Origin: Solirubrobacter pauli
GTDB taxonomy: Bacteria; Actinomycetota; Thermoleophilia; Solirubrobacterales; Solirubrobacteraceae
Direction of reading: 5' to 3'
Length of the DNA: 64,000 bases
Assembly: GCF_003633755.1 (NCBI RefSeq)
Contig: NZ_RBIL01000002.1
Location: 496,001-560,000, forward strand
Made by a program: the position numbers and the translations under genes. Below, one piece after another: positions 2,254 to 27,733 of this stretch (within the stretch, counting starts at the first letter, position 1; each line of letters opens with the position of its first letter). A model generated the notes under the pieces. That model ran no database searches and was not told the DNA's origin. It saw only the letters and a program-made list of their open reading frames with translations.

Positions 2254-4908
2254 ATGGCATCGCAGGTCGAGGTAGATCCCCAGGAGACACGCGAGTGGCT
2301 CGAGGCGCTCGACGCGGTCGTCGCGAGCGACGGCCCGCAGCGCGCGCAGTTCCTGCTGGAACGCGTCGTCGGTCACGCGCAGCTGTCCGGCGCCACGCCC
2401 GCGCCCGCGGGCAACACGCCGTACCTGAACACGATCCCGCCGCAGGATGAGCCACCTCATCCCGTCGACGAGGCGCTGGAGCGGCGAGTACGCAGCATCG
2501 TCCGCTGGAACGCGATCGCGACGATCCTGAACGCGAACAAGACCAGCTCGGAGCTCGGCGGCCACATCGCGTCCTACCAGAGCGCGGCCGTCCTCTACGA
2601 GACGGGCTTCAACCACTTCTGGCACGCCCCGAGCGACAAGCACGGTGGCGACCTGGTGTACATGCAGGGTCATTCGAGCCCGGGCGTGTACGCGCGAGCG
2701 TTCCTCGAGGGGCGGATCCCCGAGGAGCAGATGCGGAACTTCCGCACCGAGGCCTACAAGACCGGCCTCAGCTCCTACCCGCACCCGTGGCTGATGCCGG
2801 ACTTCTGGCAGTTCCCGACCGTCTCGATGGGCCTCGGCCCGCTGATGGCGATCTACCAGGCCCGCTACATGAAGTACCTGCAGGGCCGTGGCCTGGCGGA
2901 GACCGCCGGCCGCAAGGTGTGGGCCTTCCTCGGCGACGGCGAGACCGACGAGCCTGAATCCCTGGGCGCGATCTCGATGGCGGGCCGCGAGAAGCTCGAC
3001 AACCTGATCTTCGTCATCAACTGCAACCTGCAGCGCCTGGACGGCCCGGTCCGCGGCAACGGCAAGATCATCCAGGAGCTGGAGACCAACTTCCGCGGCA
3101 ACGGCTGGAACGTCATCAAGACGATCTGGGGCTCGCGCTGGGATCCGCTTCTCGCCCAGGACCACGAGGGTCACCTCCTCGCGCGGATGAACGAGGCGCT
3201 CGACGGCGACTACCAGACGTACAAGTCGCGCAACGGCGCCTACGTCCGCGAGCACTTCTTCGGCACCAAGCCGGAGCTGCGCGAGATGGTCTCCGGCATG
3301 TCCGACGACCAGATCTGGGCGCTCAACCGCGGTGGCCTGGATCAGCGCAAGGTCTACGCGGCCTACAAGGCGGCGACCGAGCACCACGGTCAGCCCACGG
3401 TCATCCTCGCGAAGACCATCAAGGGCTACGGCATGGGCACGGCGGGTGAGGGCCAGAACATCACCCACCAGCAGAAGAAGATGAACGAGGAGGCGCTGCT
3501 CTCCTTCCGCGACCGCTTCGAGCTCGAGATCACCGACGAGCAGGTCCGCAACCTCGACTTCTACAAACCGCCGAAGGGCTCGCCCGAGGCCGAGTTCATC
3601 CGCGAGCAGCGCGAGAAGCTGGGCGGCTCGCTGCCGGCGCGCCGCCGCAAGGCCGAGTCGCTGCCGACGCCGGAGCTGTCCGCGTTCCAGTCGCAGCTCG
3701 ACGGCACCGGGGACCGCGAGGTCTCCACGACGATGAGCTTCGTCCGGATCCTGTCGACGCTCCTGCGCGACAAGCAGCTCGGCAAGCGGATCGTCCCGAT
3801 CGTGCCCGACGAGTCGCGCACGTTCGGCATGGAGGGCCTGTTCCGCCAGCTCGGCATCTTCAGCCAGCTCGGCCAGCTGTACACGCCCGAGGACCGCGAC
3901 CAGCTGATGTTCTACCGCGAGGACAAGCACGGCCAGGTGCTCCAGGAGGGCATCAACGAGGCCGGCGCGATGTCGTCGTGGATCGCCGCGGGCACGTCGT
4001 ACTCCAACCACGGCGTCTCGACGATCCCGTTCTACATCTACTACTCGATGTTCGGCTTCCAGCGGGTCGGCGATCTCGCCTGGGCCGCCGGCGACAGCCG
4101 CACGCGCGGGTTCATGCTCGGCGGAACCGCGGGCCGCACGACGCTCAACGGCGAGGGCCTGCAGCACGAGGACGGGCATTCGCACCTGCTCAGCGCGACG
4201 ATCCCGAACTGCGTCTCCTACGACCCCACGTACGGCTACGAGCTCGCGGTGATCATCCGCGAGGGCCTGCGGCGGATGATGTCCGAGCAGGAAGACGTCT
4301 TCTACTACCTGACGTTGATGAACGAGAACTACCAGCACCCGGCCATGCCGGAGGGTGCTGAGGAGGGCATCCTGCGCGGGATGTACAAGCTCGCGCCGGC
4401 CGCCGAGGGCGAGGCGCAGGTGCAGCTGCTCGGCTCGGGCGTGATCCTGCGCGAGGTGCTCGCGGCGCAGGCGCTGCTCGCCGACGACTTCGGCGTGGCC
4501 GCGGACGTCTGGAGCGTCCCGAGCTTCACGGAGCTCGCCCGCGACGGCCAGGAGGTCGAGCGCTGGAACATGTTCCACCCGGGCGAGGACGCCAAGCAGA
4601 GCTGGGTCGAGCGCCAGCTCGGCGACGCGACCGGTCCGGTGATCGCGTCGACGGACTACATGCGCGCGTTCGCGGATCAGATCCGCCCGTTCGTCAAGCA
4701 GCCGTACCGCGTGCTCGGCACGGACGGCTTCGGCCGCAGCGACTACCGCAAGACGCTGCGCTCGTTCTTCGAGGTGGACCGCCACCACGTGGTCCTGGCG
4801 GCGCTCACCGAGCTGGCCAAGGCCGGCAAGATCGACCCGAGCGCGCCGAAGACGGCCATCGAGTCCTACGAGATCGACCCTGAGCGCCCCGCGCCCTGGA
4901 AGGTGTGA
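2254..4908 (+). CDS. aceE: Pyruvate dehydrogenase E1 component, homodimeric type
   Basis: E1 decarboxylates pyruvate with thiamine diphosphate and acetylates the lipoyl group of E2. The 884 residues match the homodimeric AceE length (E. coli 887) and not the split alpha/beta form. The thiamine diphosphate motif runs from GDGETDEPES to the NCNLQRLDG segment. I placed the start at the ATG at 2254 because the AGGAG of tcgaggagca sits just upstream; an in-frame ATG at 2221 would add 11 residues that look like a translated leader. It heads an operon with aceF (3 bases further) and lpd. The minus strand is also open here, but only as a GC-rich shadow. Confidence 0.96.
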   Translation: MASQVEVDPQETREWLEALDAVVASDGPQRAQFLLERVVGHAQLSGATPAPAGNTPYLNTIPPQDEPPHPVDEALERRVRSIVRWNAIATILNANKTSSELGGHIASYQSAAVLYETGFNHFWHAPSDKHGGDLVYMQGHSSPGVYARAFLEGRIPEEQMRNFRTEAYKTGLSSYPHPWLMPDFWQFPTVSMGLGPLMAIYQARYMKYLQGRGLAETAGRKVWAFLGDGETDEPESLGAISMAGREKLDNLIFVINCNLQRLDGPVRGNGKIIQELETNFRGNGWNVIKTIWGSRWDPLLAQDHEGHLLARMNEALDGDYQTYKSRNGAYVREHFFGTKPELREMVSGMSDDQIWALNRGGLDQRKVYAAYKAATEHHGQPTVILAKTIKGYGMGTAGEGQNITHQQKKMNEEALLSFRDRFELEITDEQVRNLDFYKPPKGSPEAEFIREQREKLGGSLPARRRKAESLPTPELSAFQSQLDGTGDREVSTTMSFVRILSTLLRDKQLGKRIVPIVPDESRTFGMEGLFRQLGIFSQLGQLYTPEDRDQLMFYREDKHGQVLQEGINEAGAMSSWIAAGTSYSNHGVSTIPFYIYYSMFGFQRVGDLAWAAGDSRTRGFMLGGTAGRTTLNGEGLQHEDGHSHLLSATIPNCVSYDPTYGYELAVIIREGLRRMMSEQEDVFYYLTLMNENYQHPAMPEGAEEGILRGMYKLAPAAEGEAQVQLLGSGVILREVLAAQALLADDFGVAADVWSVPSFTELARDGQEVERWNMFHPGEDAKQSWVERQLGDATGPVIASTDYMRAFADQIRPFVKQPYRVLGTDGFGRSDYRKTLRSFFEVDRHHVVLAALTELAKAGKIDPSAPKTAIESYEIDPERPAPWKV

Positions 4909-4911
4909 GAC

Positions 4912-6252
4912 GTGGCTAGCGAACAAGTGCTCGTCCCTGACATCGGGGACTTCGACGACGTCCCGGTGATCGAGGTGCTGGTCTCGGTGGGCGACGAGGT
5001 CGCCGCCGAGGATCCGCTGGTCGTCCTCGAGTCCGACAAGGCGACGATGGAGGTGCCGTCGCCCTCGGCGGGCAAGGTCGCGGCGATCACGGTCGCCGTC
5101 GGCGACAAGGTCAAGGAGGGCTCGGCGATCCTCTCGCTCGAGGTGAGCGGGGACGCGCCCGAGGCCGAGACGGCCCCCGAGGGCAGCGTCGAGCAGGACG
5201 TCAAGGCCGAGGAGTCGTCCGCCGCGGGCGACGTCGAGGAGCCCAAGCCGATCGACAGCTCCGAGCCGCCCGCGTCGCCGCAGGTGGAGGGCACGCCGTC
5301 CGGCAAGCCGTCCTCGCCGCAGCAGAAGGGCGGCCACAGCGAGGCGCCGCCGTACGCCTCGCCGGGCGTGCGCCGGCTCGCGCGTGAGCTGGGCGTCGAC
5401 CTGTCGACCGTGACGGGGTCCGGCCGCAAGGGCCGCATCACCAAGGAAGACGTGCAGAAGGCGAAGGACGCGCCGCAGGCCGCGCCGGCCGCCGACGCCC
5501 CGTCCTCCGGCGCCGCCGTCGAGGGCTTGAACCTCGCGCCGTGGCCGAAGGTCAACTTCGAGCGCTTCGGCGAGGTCGAGCGCCATCCGCTCACGCGCAT
5601 CCAGAAGATCAGCGGCCCGAACCTGGCCCGCAACTGGGTGATGATCCCGCACGTCACGCACAACGACGAGGCGGACATCACCGAGCTGGAGGCGTTCCGC
5701 AAGCGCACCAACGCCGAGCAGGACCAGGCGAAGGTGACGATGGTGGCGCTCCTGGCGAAGGCCGTCGTGGCGTCGCTGAAGGCCTACCCGGTCGTCAACA
5801 GCTCGCTGGACGGCGACGACCTGGTCCTCAAGCGCTACTACAACATCGGCTTCGCCGCCGACACGCCCAACGGCCTCGTCGTGCCGGTCATCAAGGACGC
5901 CGACAAGAAGGGCATCCTCGAGATCGCCAAGGACCTGACGGAGCTGTCGGGCAAGGCGCGCGCCGGCAAGCTCTCCGGCGGTGACATGCAGGGCGCGACG
6001 TTCACGATCTCGTCGCTGGGCGGCATCGGCGGCACGTCGTTCACCCCGATCGTCAACGCTCCCGAGGTCGCGATCCTCGGCGTCACGCGCTCCGCGATGA
6101 AGCCCGTCTGGAACGGCAGCGAGTTCGTGCCGCGCCTGATGGTGCCGCTGTCGCTGTCCTACGACCACCGGGTGATCGACGGCGCGCTCGCCGCGCGCTT
6201 CACCGCCCACCTGGTCAATCAGCTGTCCGATCTGCGGAGGGTCCTGCTCTGA
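4912..6252 (+). CDS. aceF: Pyruvate dehydrogenase E2, dihydrolipoamide acetyltransferase
   Basis: Transfers the acetyl group from lipoate to CoA and forms the core of the pyruvate dehydrogenase complex. The 446-residue protein begins with a GTG. It has one N-terminal lipoyl domain (residues about 1-80, lipoylated Lys in ESDKATMEV), an acidic and Pro-rich linker, a peripheral subunit-binding domain (about 145-185, [19 protein letters not shown]) and the catalytic domain with the DHRVIDGA active-site motif near the C-terminus. A single lipoyl domain is at the low end for AceF-type E2. The following E3 carries its own near-identical lipoyl domain, which may compensate. The last base of the stop codon is the first base of lpd. 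Confidence 0.96.
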
Positions 6253-14737: not shown

Positions 14738-14810
14738 TGGAGCTAGCCGGGATCGAACCGGCGACCTCGTGACTGCCAGTCACGCGCTCTCCCAGCTGAG
14801 CTATAGCCCC
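14738..14810 (-). tRNA. tRNA-Ala (anticodon GGC)
   Basis: Read on the minus strand, 73 bases fold as a cloverleaf. The acceptor stem is GGGGCTA with TAGCTCC (one G-U pair). The D-arm includes AGCTCAGCTGGGAGAGC, the anticodon loop is CTGGCAG closed by CGTGA/TCACG, and the T-arm contains GGTTCGATCC. The anticodon GGC reads GCC and GCU. The 3' CCA is not encoded. Confidence 0.97.
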
Positions 14811-24435: not shown

Positions 24436-26397
24436 ATGTCGCTGGACAACGCGAATCCTCCCCTCTCTTCGACCTTCCCGCCGATCGCGGACTACGGCTT
24501 CCTCTCCGACTGCGAGACGAACGCCCTGGTAGCGCCGTCGGGCGCGATCGAGTGGCTCTGCCTGCCTCGCCACGACGGCCCGAGCGTGTTCGGCGCGGTG
24601 CTGGACCGTGACGCCGGCACGTTCCGGCTCGGCCCGGCGGACACGATGGTCCCGGCCGCCCGGCGCTACCTGCCGGGGACGATGATCCTCGAGACCACGT
24701 GGGGCACCGACCGCGGCTGGCTGATCGTCCGCGACGTCCTGCTCGTCGGCCCGTGGCACGACAAGGACGAGCGCTCCACGACGCACCGCCGCGCGCCCAC
24801 CGACCACGACGCCGATCACGTGCTGCTGCGCACCATGCGCTGCGTGAACGGCTCGGTCGAGGTGCAGCTCGAGTGCGACCCGATCTTCGACTACGGCCGC
24901 CGCTACGCGCAGTGGGAGTACGTCGGCGAGGGCTACCACGAGGCGGTCGCGTCGGCCGAGGGCTGGGGCACGAAGCTGCGGCTGACGACCGACCTGCGCG
25001 TCGGCTTCGAGGGATCGCGCGTGCGTGCCGTCAGCACGCTGAAGGCGGGGGAGACCGCGTTCGTGTCGCTCGCGTTCTCGGACCATCCCGGCCCGAAGAC
25101 CTACGACGAAGCGTACGAGCGGCTGGTCAAGACCGCCGACTACTGGCACCAGTGGCTCGCCCACGGCACGTTCCCGGACCATCCGTGGCGCCAGTACCTG
25201 CAGCGCTCCGCGCTCACGCTCAAGGGCCTGAGCTACTCGCCGACGGGCGCGATGATCGCCGCGGCCACCACGTCGCTGCCGGAGACGCCGGGCGGCGAGC
25301 GCAACTGGGACTACCGCTACAGCTGGGTGCGCGACAGCACCTTCATGCTCTGGGGCCTGCACTCGCTCGGCTTCGAGTGGGAGGCCAACGACTACTTCTA
25401 CTTCATGCAGGACGCCGCCCAGGCGGACGACCTGCAGGTCATGTACGGCATCCAGGGCGAGCGCGAGCTGATCGAGGAGACGCTCGACCACCTCAGCGGC
25501 TACGACAACGCCCGCCCGGTCCGCATCGGCAACGGCGCCTACAACCAGCGCCAGCACGACGTGTGGGGCACGATGCTGGACTCGATCTTCCTCCACGCCA
25601 AGTCGCGCGACCACCTGCCCGAGCGCCGCTGGCCGTTGATCAAGCGCCTCGTCGAGGCCGCGATCGAGAACTGGCAGAAGCCCGACAAGGGCATCTGGGA
25701 GGTCCGCGGCGGCGACCAGCACTTCACCTCGTCGAAGGTCATGTGCTGGGTCGCGTGTGACCGCGGCTCGCGGCTCGCCACGCTGCGCGAGAACCACGAG
25801 CAGGCCGCGATCTGGCGTGAGAAGGCCGACGAGATCAAGGCCGACATCCTCGACAAGGGCTGCCGGGACGGCATCTTCACGCAGCACTACGACACCGACG
25901 CGCTGGATGCGTCGGCGCTGCTGATCCCGCTCGTCCGCTTCCTGCCGCCCGACGACGAGCGCGTCCGCAAGACCGTGATGGCGATCGCCGACAACCTCAC
26001 GATCGACGGGCTCGTGCTCCGCTACAAGGTCGAGGAGACCGACGACGGCCTCCAGGGCGAGGAGGGCACGTTCACGATCTGCTCGTTCTGGCTCGTGAGC
26101 GCCCTGAGCGAGATCGGCGAGCACCACCTCGCCCGCGACCTGTGCCAGAAGCTGCTCGGCTACGCGTCCCCGCTGCACCTGTACGCGGAGGAGATCGACC
26201 CGCGCAGCGGCCGCCACCTCGGCAACTTCCCGCAGGCCTTCACGCACCTGGCGCTGATCAACGCCGTCATGCACGTGATCCGCGCCGACGAGAAGCTCGC
26301 CGCGGGCATGCAGCCGCTGTCCGCGCACGACGAGCCGCTGCCGCTGGAGCCCGACCCGGTGGTCGTCGCGCCCGCGGCCAAGAAGAAGAAGCCCTAG
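24436..26397 (+). CDS. Glycoside hydrolase family 15 protein (glucoamylase or trehalase type)
   Basis: Predicted to cleave alpha-glucosidic bonds, for example in trehalose or in dextrins, with inversion. The 653 residues include the N-terminal beta-sandwich region typical of this group (IADYGFLSDCETNALVAPSG, IEWLCLPRHDGPSVFG). The (alpha/alpha)6 barrel follows from about residue 270 (RNWDYRYSWVRDSTFML), with the second acidic region EEGTFTICSFWLV. The N-terminal wording is close to actinobacterial GH15 trehalases, so trehalase is possible; the substrate cannot be settled by eye. There is no signal peptide, so the enzyme is cytoplasmic. The C-terminus ends in a run of Lys residues. Confidence 0.9.
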   Translation: MSLDNANPPLSSTFPPIADYGFLSDCETNALVAPSGAIEWLCLPRHDGPSVFGAVLDRDAGTFRLGPADTMVPAARRYLPGTMILETTWGTDRGWLIVRDVLLVGPWHDKDERSTTHRRAPTDHDADHVLLRTMRCVNGSVEVQLECDPIFDYGRRYAQWEYVGEGYHEAVASAEGWGTKLRLTTDLRVGFEGSRVRAVSTLKAGETAFVSLAFSDHPGPKTYDEAYERLVKTADYWHQWLAHGTFPDHPWRQYLQRSALTLKGLSYSPTGAMIAAATTSLPETPGGERNWDYRYSWVRDSTFMLWGLHSLGFEWEANDYFYFMQDAAQADDLQVMYGIQGERELIEETLDHLSGYDNARPVRIGNGAYNQRQHDVWGTMLDSIFLHAKSRDHLPERRWPLIKRLVEAAIENWQKPDKGIWEVRGGDQHFTSSKVMCWVACDRGSRLATLRENHEQAAIWREKADEIKADILDKGCRDGIFTQHYDTDALDASALLIPLVRFLPPDDERVRKTVMAIADNLTIDGLVLRYKVEETDDGLQGEEGTFTICSFWLVSALSEIGEHHLARDLCQKLLGYASPLHLYAEEIDPRSGRHLGNFPQAFTHLALINAVMHVIRADEKLAAGMQPLSAHDEPLPLEPDPVVVAPAAKKKKP

Positions 26398-26424: not shown

Positions 26425-26934
26425 CTAGCCGACGCGCGCGCCGGCCGCCTCCAGCTCACGCCGGAGCGCGGCCGCCGCGTCCGGGCTCAGCCCCGACACG
26501 ACCAGGGTGGGCGCGGCCTCGACGAGCTCCTTGGCCTCGCGCAGGCCGAGCCCGCTCGCCTCGCGCACGACCTTGATCACCTTGATCTTGTTGCGCCCGG
26601 CGTCGGCGAGAAAGACGCTGCCGCCGACCGGAGGTGTCTCCGGCTCAGGCTGAGGCGCTCCCGCCGGGTGATATTGCACGACCGCGCCGGCGCGCTCGAG
26701 GTCTGGGCCCAGCGCGGCGTCGAGCACCACCGGCGTGCGTTCGACGAGCTCCTTCGCCTCGCGCAGGCCGAGCCCGGTCGCCTCGCGCACGATCTTGATC
26801 ACGACGATCTTGTTGCGCCCGGCGTCGACGAGCACGAGATCGCCCGTCCGCGGCGCGGACACGGGCACGGCGGGCAGGCCGTTGTCGGCCACGTCATCGT
26901 CGTCGCGGCCGAGCAGGCGCCGGAGGAAGCTCAT
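26425..26934 (-). CDS. Protein with two ribosomal L7/L12 C-terminal-type domains
   Basis: A 169-residue protein with a short basic/acidic N-terminus (MSFLRRLLGRDDDD) and then two copies of the L7/L12 C-terminal fold. Copy one is at about residues 37-90 (DAGRNKIVVIKIVREATGLG, LREAKELVERTP) and copy two at about 110-168 (DAGRNKIKVIKVVREASGLG, LREAKELVEAAP). These helices in true L7/L12 recruit translational GTPases. The N-terminal dimerisation domain that anchors L7/L12 to L10 is absent, so this is not the stalk protein itself. Function is unknown; competition for elongation factors or another partner is inference. It follows a paralogue nine bases upstream, and both lie next to rpsT. Confidence 0.85.
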   Translation of the reverse strand: MSFLRRLLGRDDDDVADNGLPAVPVSAPRTGDLVLVDAGRNKIVVIKIVREATGLGLREAKELVERTPVVLDAALGPDLERAGAVVQYHPAGAPQPEPETPPVGGSVFLADAGRNKIKVIKVVREASGLGLREAKELVEAAPTLVVSGLSPDAAAALRRELEAAGARVG

Positions 26935-26943
26935 GGCGCGATC

Positions 26944-27384
26944 CTAGGGGGCCACGCGCGCGCCCGCCGCCTCGAGCCGCTCCCGCAGCGCGGCCGCCGC
27001 GTCGGGCTTGAGCCCTGACGCGACGACGCCCGGCGCCGTCTCGACGAGGTGCTTCGCCTCGCGCAGCGTGAGGCCGGTGCCCGCCGCGATCGCCTTCGTC
27101 ACGCGCAGCCGGTCCGCGCCGGGATCGAGCAGGGTGACCGACGCGTCGCCGGTCGGCGTCGAGATCGGCACCACCGGGCCCGGCGGCGGCTCACGGTCCT
27201 CGACGACGGCGCCGACGCGCTCGAGCTCCTCGCGCAGCACCGGGGCGAGGGCAGGGTGGAGGCCGAGCGCGGCCGGGAGCGCCTCGACGAGCTCCGCGGC
27301 CCGCCGCGGGCCGACGTCCATCACCATGGCGATCGCGGCGACGGCCTCATCCGGCCGTGGCCCGAGGTCCACCAGTGTCAGCAC
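26944..27384 (-). CDS. Second L7/L12 C-terminal-domain protein (paralogue)
   Basis: A 146-residue protein starting at a GTG (27384-27382); a longer reading would overlap rpsT and its terminator, so I reject it. It has a diverged first domain (about residues 3-65, ELVEALPAALGLHPALAPVL) and a clear second one (about 85-146, LRVTKAIAAGTGLTLREAKH, LVETAP). The final segment (KPDAAAALRERLEAAGARV) is almost the same as the end of the downstream paralogue (SPDAAAALRRELEAAGARV), indicating duplication. It is followed after nine bases by that gene, so the two form an operon. Confidence 0.8.
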   Translation of the reverse strand: MLTLVDLGPRPDEAVAAIAMVMDVGPRRAAELVEALPAALGLHPALAPVLREELERVGAVVEDREPPPGPVVPISTPTGDASVTLLDPGADRLRVTKAIAAGTGLTLREAKHLVETAPGVVASGLKPDAAAALRERLEAAGARVAP

Positions 27385-27411
27385 GGCCGCGATTCTAGGT
27401 CCCTTAAACGC

Positions 27412-27437
27412 AAAAGGCGCCGGATGAACCGGCGCCT
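27412..27437 (-). terminator. rpsT intrinsic terminator
   Basis: On the minus strand, AGGCGCCGG pairs with CCGGCGCCT around a five-base loop (27415-27437) and is followed by TTTT: a classical intrinsic terminator 27 bases after the rpsT stop. It separates rpsT from the L7/L12-like pair unless read through. Confidence 0.85.
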
Positions 27438-27463
27438 CAGCAGCGAGTGATCGCTCGAAGGGG

Positions 27464-27733
27464 TTACTCGGCGGGCGTGCCGCGACGCAGCCGCTCAGCC
27501 CGCGCCTTCTTGCGCGCGCCGGTGTTGGCGTGCAGCGCACCGCGCTTGACGGCCTTGTCGATCAGCGAGATGAGCTTGCGGTGCTCGGTGCCCACCGTCT
27601 CGTCGTTGCCGTCGGTCACGGCGGTCTCGAGGCGCCGGAAGTACGTCTTGATCTGCGACGTATATTGGCGGTTCTCGACGCGCTCGCGCTCGGAGCGGTT
27701 GTTCCGCTTGATCTGTGACTTGATGTTGGCCAT
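27464..27733 (-). CDS. rpsT: 30S ribosomal protein S20
   Basis: Binds 16S rRNA early in small-subunit assembly. The 89-residue basic protein begins MANIKSQIKRNNRSERER and has the typical S20 core (KTYFRRLETAV, LISLIDKAVKRGALHANTGA, RKKARAERL). It is transcribed away from murJ across a 52-base gap that holds an overlapping pair of -10 elements, and it ends at a strong terminator. Confidence 0.97.
   Translation of the reverse strand: MANIKSQIKRNNRSERERVENRQYTSQIKTYFRRLETAVTDGNDETVGTEHRKLISLIDKAVKRGALHANTGARKKARAERLRRGTPAE

What the first reader, a model, noticed from the sequence alone, without database searches (positions are those of the whole stretch)
26425..27384. Operon of two proteins built from paired L7/L12 C-terminal domains beside rpsT
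Each protein has two copies of the helix set that in ribosomal L7/L12 recruits EF-Tu, EF-G and other GTPases, but neither has the N-terminal dimerisation domain needed to sit on the ribosomal stalk. The two share their final 20 residues almost exactly, so they arose by duplication. Four factor-binding-like domains free of the ribosome could titrate or deliver translational GTPases, or serve a new role. Proximity to rpsT, lepA and murJ is consistent with a translation link but does not prove it.
Basis: partly seen in the sequence, partly recalled or inferred. Interest (0 to 1): 0.68.

Follow-up and report, generated by a model that had tools for sequence, protein, structure and literature searches.

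The report
Off-ribosome paired L7/L12-tail proteins
Next to a ribosomal-protein gene, one small group of bacteria carries two real genes whose proteins are built from paired copies of the ribosome's factor-catching domain but lack the part that attaches it to the ribosome; they may bind translation factors elsewhere in the cell, which remains to be tested.

Summary
Window 26425-26934 (-) and 26944-27384 (-) encode two small proteins (here P1, 169 aa, and P2, 146 aa), each with two L7/L12 C-terminal domains (CTDs) in tandem and no L12 dimerisation domain (Pfam, predicted structures). Both genes are under purifying selection. The genome has a separate L1-L10-L12 operon, so these are not its stalk protein.

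The interpretation needs trimming. Both P1 domains keep the factor-binding helix pair, P2's second domain keeps it partly, and P2's first domain has lost it. P1 has a conserved N-terminal tail (MSFLRRLLGR...) in place of the L12 N-domain. The pair is confined to one genus: P2 in 5 of 7 genomes, P1 in 3 of 7 (one with a single CTD), always between rpsT and a GH15 gene; two genus genomes lack both. P2 was found nowhere else among 146 family genomes; profile scores showed no other double CTD in samples of 199 class and 396 phylum genomes. A terminator-like hairpin separates rpsT from the pair, so the rpsT link is weak.

Best reading: P1 is a non-ribosomal, two-headed docking protein for translational GTPases, P2 a diverged partner. 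Binding is inferred, not shown. New variant of a known kind (L12-CTD proteins off the ribosome).

The parts
26425..26934 (-). P1, 169 aa: conserved N-tail (1-31), CTD1 (about 32-90, shortened third helix), linker, CTD2 (about 105-168)
26944..27384 (-). P2, 146 aa, GTG start: diverged CTD1 (1-63), proline-rich linker, CTD2 (about 81-145)
26935..26943 (-). 9-bp gap between P2 stop and P1 start; the context CCTAGGATCGnGCC-ATG (which includes P2's stop codon) is kept in all 3 genomes with P1
27414..27438 (-). terminator-like hairpin with TTGCGTTTAA tail between rpsT and P2; a hairpin at the same place precedes P2 in the other four P2 genomes (tail poorer in T in G012 and G048)
27464..27733 (-). 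rpsT (ribosomal protein S20)
24436..26397 (+). GH15-family gene, convergent with P1; marks the other side of the locus

Best explanation
P1 and P2 are a genus-specific pair made by duplication of an L7/L12 CTD module. SHOWN: two CTD folds per chain (predicted), no L12 N-domain, a separate L12 operon in the genome, purifying selection, P1 factor-binding helices kept, P1 N-tail conserved. INFERRED: lacking the L10-binding domain, P1 does not join the stalk; instead its two CTDs dock translational GTPases (EF-Tu, EF-G, IF2, LepA, RF3 are candidates) through the same helix pair that the stalk uses, while the N-tail fixes P1 to some other partner. P2, whose first domain has lost the factor face but conserves helix 2 (GPRRAAELVE), is a diverged partner or regulator. 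The likely effect is a local reservoir or bridge for GTPases away from, or alongside, the stalk.
For: PF00542 in both proteins and no PF16320 (positive control). Both structures and their Foldseek hits. rplA-rplJ-rplL elsewhere in the genome. Factor-face residues kept in P1a and P1b in both genomes that carry two-CTD P1, and in the single CTD of G033. L7/L12 CTD helices 4 and 5 contact EF-Tu helix D (stated and cited in PMC5770553, passages read); L12 CTDs recruit factors (review PMC4592705, passages). P1 N-tail (residues 1-31): 27 of 30 aligned residues identical between own and G061, dN 0.076, the linker far freer, 6 of 13; a DNA pattern for the tail's start occurs once in the 7.1-Mb genome. 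P2a helix 2 keeps 11-13 of 14 residues, helix 1 only 4-7 of 14, over six pairs of four distinct orthologues.
Against: No binding data. The P1 helix pair is not more conserved than the rest of its CTDs (dN 0.13-0.16 against 0.04-0.14), so selection on the GTPase face in particular is not demonstrated. P1 and P2 are both missing from 2 of 7 genus genomes and P1 from 4 of 7, so the pair is dispensable. P2 dN/dS reaches 0.64. P1 of G061 ends in an unrelated tail (GATSASSSRAP for GARVG). P1's N-tail is not more amphipathic than its shuffles, so a membrane anchor is unsupported.
Confidence: 0.42

Rival explanations
1. Drifting accessory duplicates: an L12-CTD module copied long ago persists with weak, lineage-specific use and is being lost; there is no important role.
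For: Patchy presence, variable CTD number (G033 has one in P1), P2a face lost, odd C-terminus of P1 in G061; P2 dN/dS 0.28-0.64 against 0.13-0.23 in rpsT.
Against: Open frames in every carrier and dN/dS below 1 in every distinct pair compared (P1: one pair; P2: six); P1 N-tail and P1a's shortened end strongly conserved between own and G061.
Confidence: 0.27
2. The CTD fold has been reused for a non-translational protein contact, for example as a generic adaptor (the fold is shared with ClpS) or a partner of a membrane or stress system, as may hold for SHOCT-linked and hairpin-only L12-CTD proteins.
For: Family genomes hold CTDs fused to SHOCT (G029, G026) or only the helix hairpin (G010, G031, G046); a Lysobacterales protein has two hairpins and a C-terminal hydrophobic segment; ClpS appears as a weaker fold match; P2a lost the factor face.
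Against: P1 keeps the factor face nearly intact in all its CTDs; no ClpS family listed in Pfam at E <= 1.
Confidence: 0.22
3. P1/P2 still work on the ribosome, for instance docking to L11 or L10 by the N-tail as extra stalk arms.
For: Intact factor faces in P1; a phage bL12-domain protein (Salmonella phage FSL SP-076) was reported in ribosome fractions of E. coli (PMC6375957, passages).
Against: No L12 N-domain, which binds L10; ribosomes carrying the tagged phage bL12 protein could not be purified (PMC6375957).
Confidence: 0.06
4. Decoys for agents that act on L12.
For: Oxydifficidin acts through L7/L12 (PMC12119084, passages).
Against: Nothing tested here links the locus to any such agent; I did not search for resistance or biosynthesis genes.
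Confidence: 0.03

Closest known systems
Ribosomal protein bL12 (L7/L12), TIGR00855 / PF16320 + PF00542
   Same: CTD sequence and fold; P1 keeps the factor-binding helices; P1 even passes the TIGR00855 cut-off (108.9 against 84.4 bits)
   Different: No N-terminal dimerisation/L10-binding domain; two CTDs per chain; outside the rplJ-rplL operon; a true L12 is present
Stand-alone L12-CTD proteins with SHOCT (G029, G026 in this family)
   Same: CTD without the L12 N-domain; G029 has a similar short basic start before the CTD
   Different: One CTD and a SHOCT domain; no rpsT, murJ, lepA or GH15 match in the fetched stretches around them
Lysobacterales tandem-hairpin protein (L086)
   Same: Two L12-CTD helix hairpins (first by Pfam, second by eye), no PF16320 match at E <= 0.01
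   Different: Only partial CTDs (PF00542 positions 10-37 in the best stretch), C-terminal hydrophobic segment
Phage proteins with bL12 domains (Mizuno et al. 2019, PMC6375957, passages)
   Same: bL12 domain used outside the normal gene, with conserved factor-contact residues reported
   Different: Phage-borne, about 30-40% identity to cellular bL12, more commonly inside much larger polypeptides

Membership tests
bL12 ribosomal stalk protein | L7/L12 C-terminal domain | tested here: met
   PF00542 in P1 and P2; structures
bL12 ribosomal stalk protein | N-terminal dimerisation domain that binds L10 | tested here: not met
   no PF16320 at E <= 1; control L12 positive
bL12 ribosomal stalk protein | gene next to rplJ | tested here: not met
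   the true rplL follows rplA and rplJ on contig 1; P1/P2 sit beside rpsT on contig 2
bL12 ribosomal stalk protein | factor-binding face on the first two CTD helices | tested here: inconclusive
   kept in P1a and P1b, partly in P2b, lost in P2a; residue list recalled, binding not testable
bL12 ribosomal stalk protein | incorporation into 50S | not testable with these tools
   needs ribosome fractionation
Stand-alone L12-CTD proteins (no single named family) | PF00542 without PF16320, beside a separate bL12 | tested here: met
ClpS adaptor (same fold class) | ClpS sequence family | tested here: not met
   no ClpS Pfam family listed at E <= 1; ClpS only as weaker fold matches, best E 0.025 and 0.047

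The most novel reading that the evidence does not exclude
P1 is a portable, two-armed ribosomal stalk: its tail fixes it to a non-ribosomal partner or place, and its CTDs gather EF-Tu ternary complexes, EF-G or LepA there, with P2 tuning it. This would be a cellular, non-phage system that steers translational GTPases off the ribosome.
Probability: 0.17. Interest if true: 0.7.

Novelty: new variant of a known kind. Interest (0 to 1): 0.36.

Why it matters
If P1 binds translational GTPases it would show a bacterium using stalk domains as a separate docking or buffering device, and would suggest a testable function for the scattered L12-CTD proteins that lack the stalk domain. In practice it also shows how two CTDs in one chain can carry a non-ribosomal protein over the bL12 naming cut-off.

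Tried and rejected
Membrane anchor for P1's N-tail: hydrophobic moment 0.64 for the first ten residues, but about 25% of shuffles reach it, so not claimed. Within-gene homogenisation of the P1 helix pair: P1a and P1b are closer within a genome (91% and 89% nt) than between genomes (81% and 84%), but informative sites split 7 for paralogues and 7 for orthologues, none crossed; suggestive only. Recent copy of the genus's own L12: not favoured; 18 family L12 CTDs form their own group (96/94) apart from the P1/P2 domains (18 of 30 L12 loci matched my search expression, the other 12 were dropped; two single CTDs in the tree are long, unsure branches). Phage or plasmid origin: 8 phage and 19 plasmid records matched P1, none over 80% of it; the rows listed (8 of 8 and 15 of 19) are rplL, 'ribosomal protein L7/L12' or bear no annotation there. 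PHROGs: 7 families match P1, all of unknown function, none matches P2. Possible double CTDs in the class sample: six matches from five genomes (G102, G123, G145, G156, G182), among them the two best outside the genus and the one listed genome outside the family with two matches, were fetched and read; all six are ordinary L12 with one CTD. Paper searches for CTD-only L12 proteins showed no paper on such a cellular pair by title and abstract start (one search listed 10 of 40); the library lacks most subscription journals.

Organism not identified by any search; a Solirubrobacter-like actinobacterium is my guess from recall.

Full report
WHAT IS THERE. On the minus strand, downstream of rpsT (27464-27733), lie two genes: P2 (26944-27384, GTG, 146 aa) and P1 (26425-26934, ATG, 169 aa), 9 bp apart; a GH15-family gene (24436-26397, +) converges on P1. 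PF00542 matches P1 at 1.1e-35 and P2 at 2.2e-17, two stretches each at E <= 1. In the genome search at E <= 0.001 P1b, P2b and P1a (profile positions 2-44) are listed; the window's P2a is not, though P2a of G033 and G061 is (1.3e-5, 4.7e-5). Neither protein matches the L12 dimerisation domain PF16320 at E <= 1; the genome's own L12 matches it at 6.6e-16. That L12 lies on contig 1 behind rplA and rplJ.

STRUCTURE. AlphaFold2 models (alignments of window proteins and L12 CTDs from public loci) give two beta-alpha-alpha-beta-alpha-beta domains in P1 (mean pLDDT 75.9, tail and part of the linker below 50) and in P2 (85.0). Foldseek's hits at E <= 0.001 are all L7/L12 chains for both (11 for P1, 8 for P2); P1's top hit is 1ctf at rmsd 1.0; P2 matches 1rqs and 1ctf at rmsd 1.2 and 1.1. 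Which domain is covered is not printed. ClpS, which shares the fold, comes lower. pTM is 0.38 and 0.44, so the relative placement of the two domains is not predicted.

ARE THE GENES REAL? Yes. Third codon positions are the most changed class in every distinct orthologue pair (for P1, 60 of 103 changes). dN/dS is 0.29 for P1 (own against G061) and 0.28-0.64 for the six distinct P2 pairs, against 0.13-0.23 for rpsT (ratios from the dN and dS, NG86 method, which such G+C-rich DNA may bias). They are constrained but evolve much faster than rpsT.

WHERE ELSE? In the 7 held genomes of the genus, P2 is in 5 and P1 in 3: own and G061 with two CTDs, G033 with one; G012 and G048 have P2 only and are identical at P2, so they count as one lineage. 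G072 and G081 keep holA-GH15-rpsT-murJ-lepA without either gene. A P2 profile over the 146 held family genomes (at most 27 candidates scored in each) gave full-length matches only in those 5 (238-262 bits); the next were the P1s (78-91) and then single-CTD matches below 60. A P1 profile gave no sign of another double CTD in 199 class genomes: the best match outside the genus was 7.1e-20 (72 bits), where the window's P1 scores 334 and P2 88 (at most 18 candidates scored per genome, list cut). Six of those matches, including the two best, were read and are ordinary L12. In 396 phylum genomes at E <= 1e-20 only the own genome rang (at most 9 candidates scored per genome); no other genus member appears among the genomes listed for either sample. 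A much diverged double CTD could have been missed. Single CTDs without the N-domain do occur in the family: fused to SHOCT in G029 and G026, or as the helix hairpin alone in G010, G031 and G046 (of the last three only G031's protein was scanned with Pfam, at 24.3 bits just under the 25.9 cut-off). Second matches in G002 and G036 look like frame-broken L12 (by eye). A Lysobacterales MAG has a protein with one CTD hairpin by Pfam, a second by eye, and a C-terminal hydrophobic segment (L086), so pairing as such is not unique.

THE FOUR DOMAINS ARE NOT EQUAL. On the alignment, at E. coli positions K65, V66, I69, K70, R73, L80, E82 and K84 (list recalled; that helices 4 and 5 contact EF-Tu is stated in PMC5770553), P1a and P1b read K,I,I,K,R,L,E,K in own and G061, and so does G033's single CTD. 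P2b keeps a basic residue at 65, K70, L80, E82 and K or R at 84 in four of four distinct orthologues, but R73 in two of four and I69 in one. P2a of the window keeps none identically. Among P2 orthologues P2a helix 1 is variable (4-7 of 14 identical) while helix 2 is conserved (11-13 of 14): P2a has probably traded the factor face for another contact. P1a has a shortened third helix shared by own and G061. P1's N-tail (residues 1-31) has 27 of 30 aligned residues identical to G061 and is recognisable in G033; a DNA pattern for its start occurs once in the genome. Its role is unknown, and amphipathicity is no greater than in shuffles. G061's P1 ends differently.

ORIGIN. In a tree of 33 CTDs, P1 and P2 second domains group (90/83), P2b alone is 100/98, P2a is a long separate branch, and 18 family L12 CTDs form their own group (96/94). 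This fits duplication within a P1/P2 lineage rather than a recent copy of L12. The two P1 helix pairs look partly homogenised within each genome, but site patterns are split 7 to 7.

EXPRESSION. A 10-pair hairpin followed by TTGCGTTTAA lies between rpsT and P2 (27438-27414), with a hairpin at the same place in G061, G033, G012 and G048. G081, which lacks P2, has a hairpin with a T run there; G072, also without P2, shows no T run. Co-transcription with rpsT would need read-through; otherwise the pair has its own start. The sigma-70-type scan found no site directly before P2; its one site lies upstream of rpsT.

MECHANISM. Shown: predicted folds, missing N-domain, selection, distribution, preserved P1 faces. 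Inferred: P1 docks translational GTPases through the stalk-type helix pair away from the stalk, tethered by its tail, and P2 is a diverged partner. L12 CTDs recruit EF-Tu, EF-G and other factors (PMC4592705 passages). Against: P1's helix pair is not preferentially conserved and the pair is dispensable across the genus. Phage proteins with bL12 domains (PMC6375957 passages) show that the domain does move into other proteins.

VERDICT. A real, genus-restricted, double-CTD pair; not bL12 (no N-domain, tested) though P1 passes the TIGR00855 cut-off. Moderately interesting; function open.

Noticed in passing
window 26425-26934: P1 scores 108.9 bits on NCBIfam TIGR00855 (cut-off 84.4), with two matched stretches, so automatic annotation could misname it 50S ribosomal protein L7/L12.
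   Followed up: yes
window 27370-27440; L089, L090, L091, L092: In all five P2 genomes a stem-loop and a tail like TTTTGCGTTTAA (TTCGCGTTTAA in G012 and G048) end just before the P2 start; in three distinct sequences TTTAAT sits 6-7 nt before an ATG, as in leaderless promoters (reading from recall). In G033 and G061 an in-frame ATG inside TTTAATG makes the exact start unsure.
   Followed up: partly
window 26935-26950 and 27385-27400: The contexts before the two starts resemble each other (CCTAGGATCGCGCC-ATG and CCTAGAATCGCGGCC-GTG), perhaps a trace of the gene duplication.
   Followed up: no
L086 3926-4375: Lysobacterales MAG protein with two L12-CTD-like helix hairpins and a C-terminal hydrophobic segment; possibly membrane-bound.
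   Followed up: partly
L096, L097, L098 near 4750-5140: Three family genomes encode small proteins ending in only the CTD helix hairpin (such as IQAIKLHREQTGLGLAEAK).
   Followed up: partly
window 14738-14810: tRNA gene on the minus strand, the only Rfam match in the window at gathering score.
   Followed up: no
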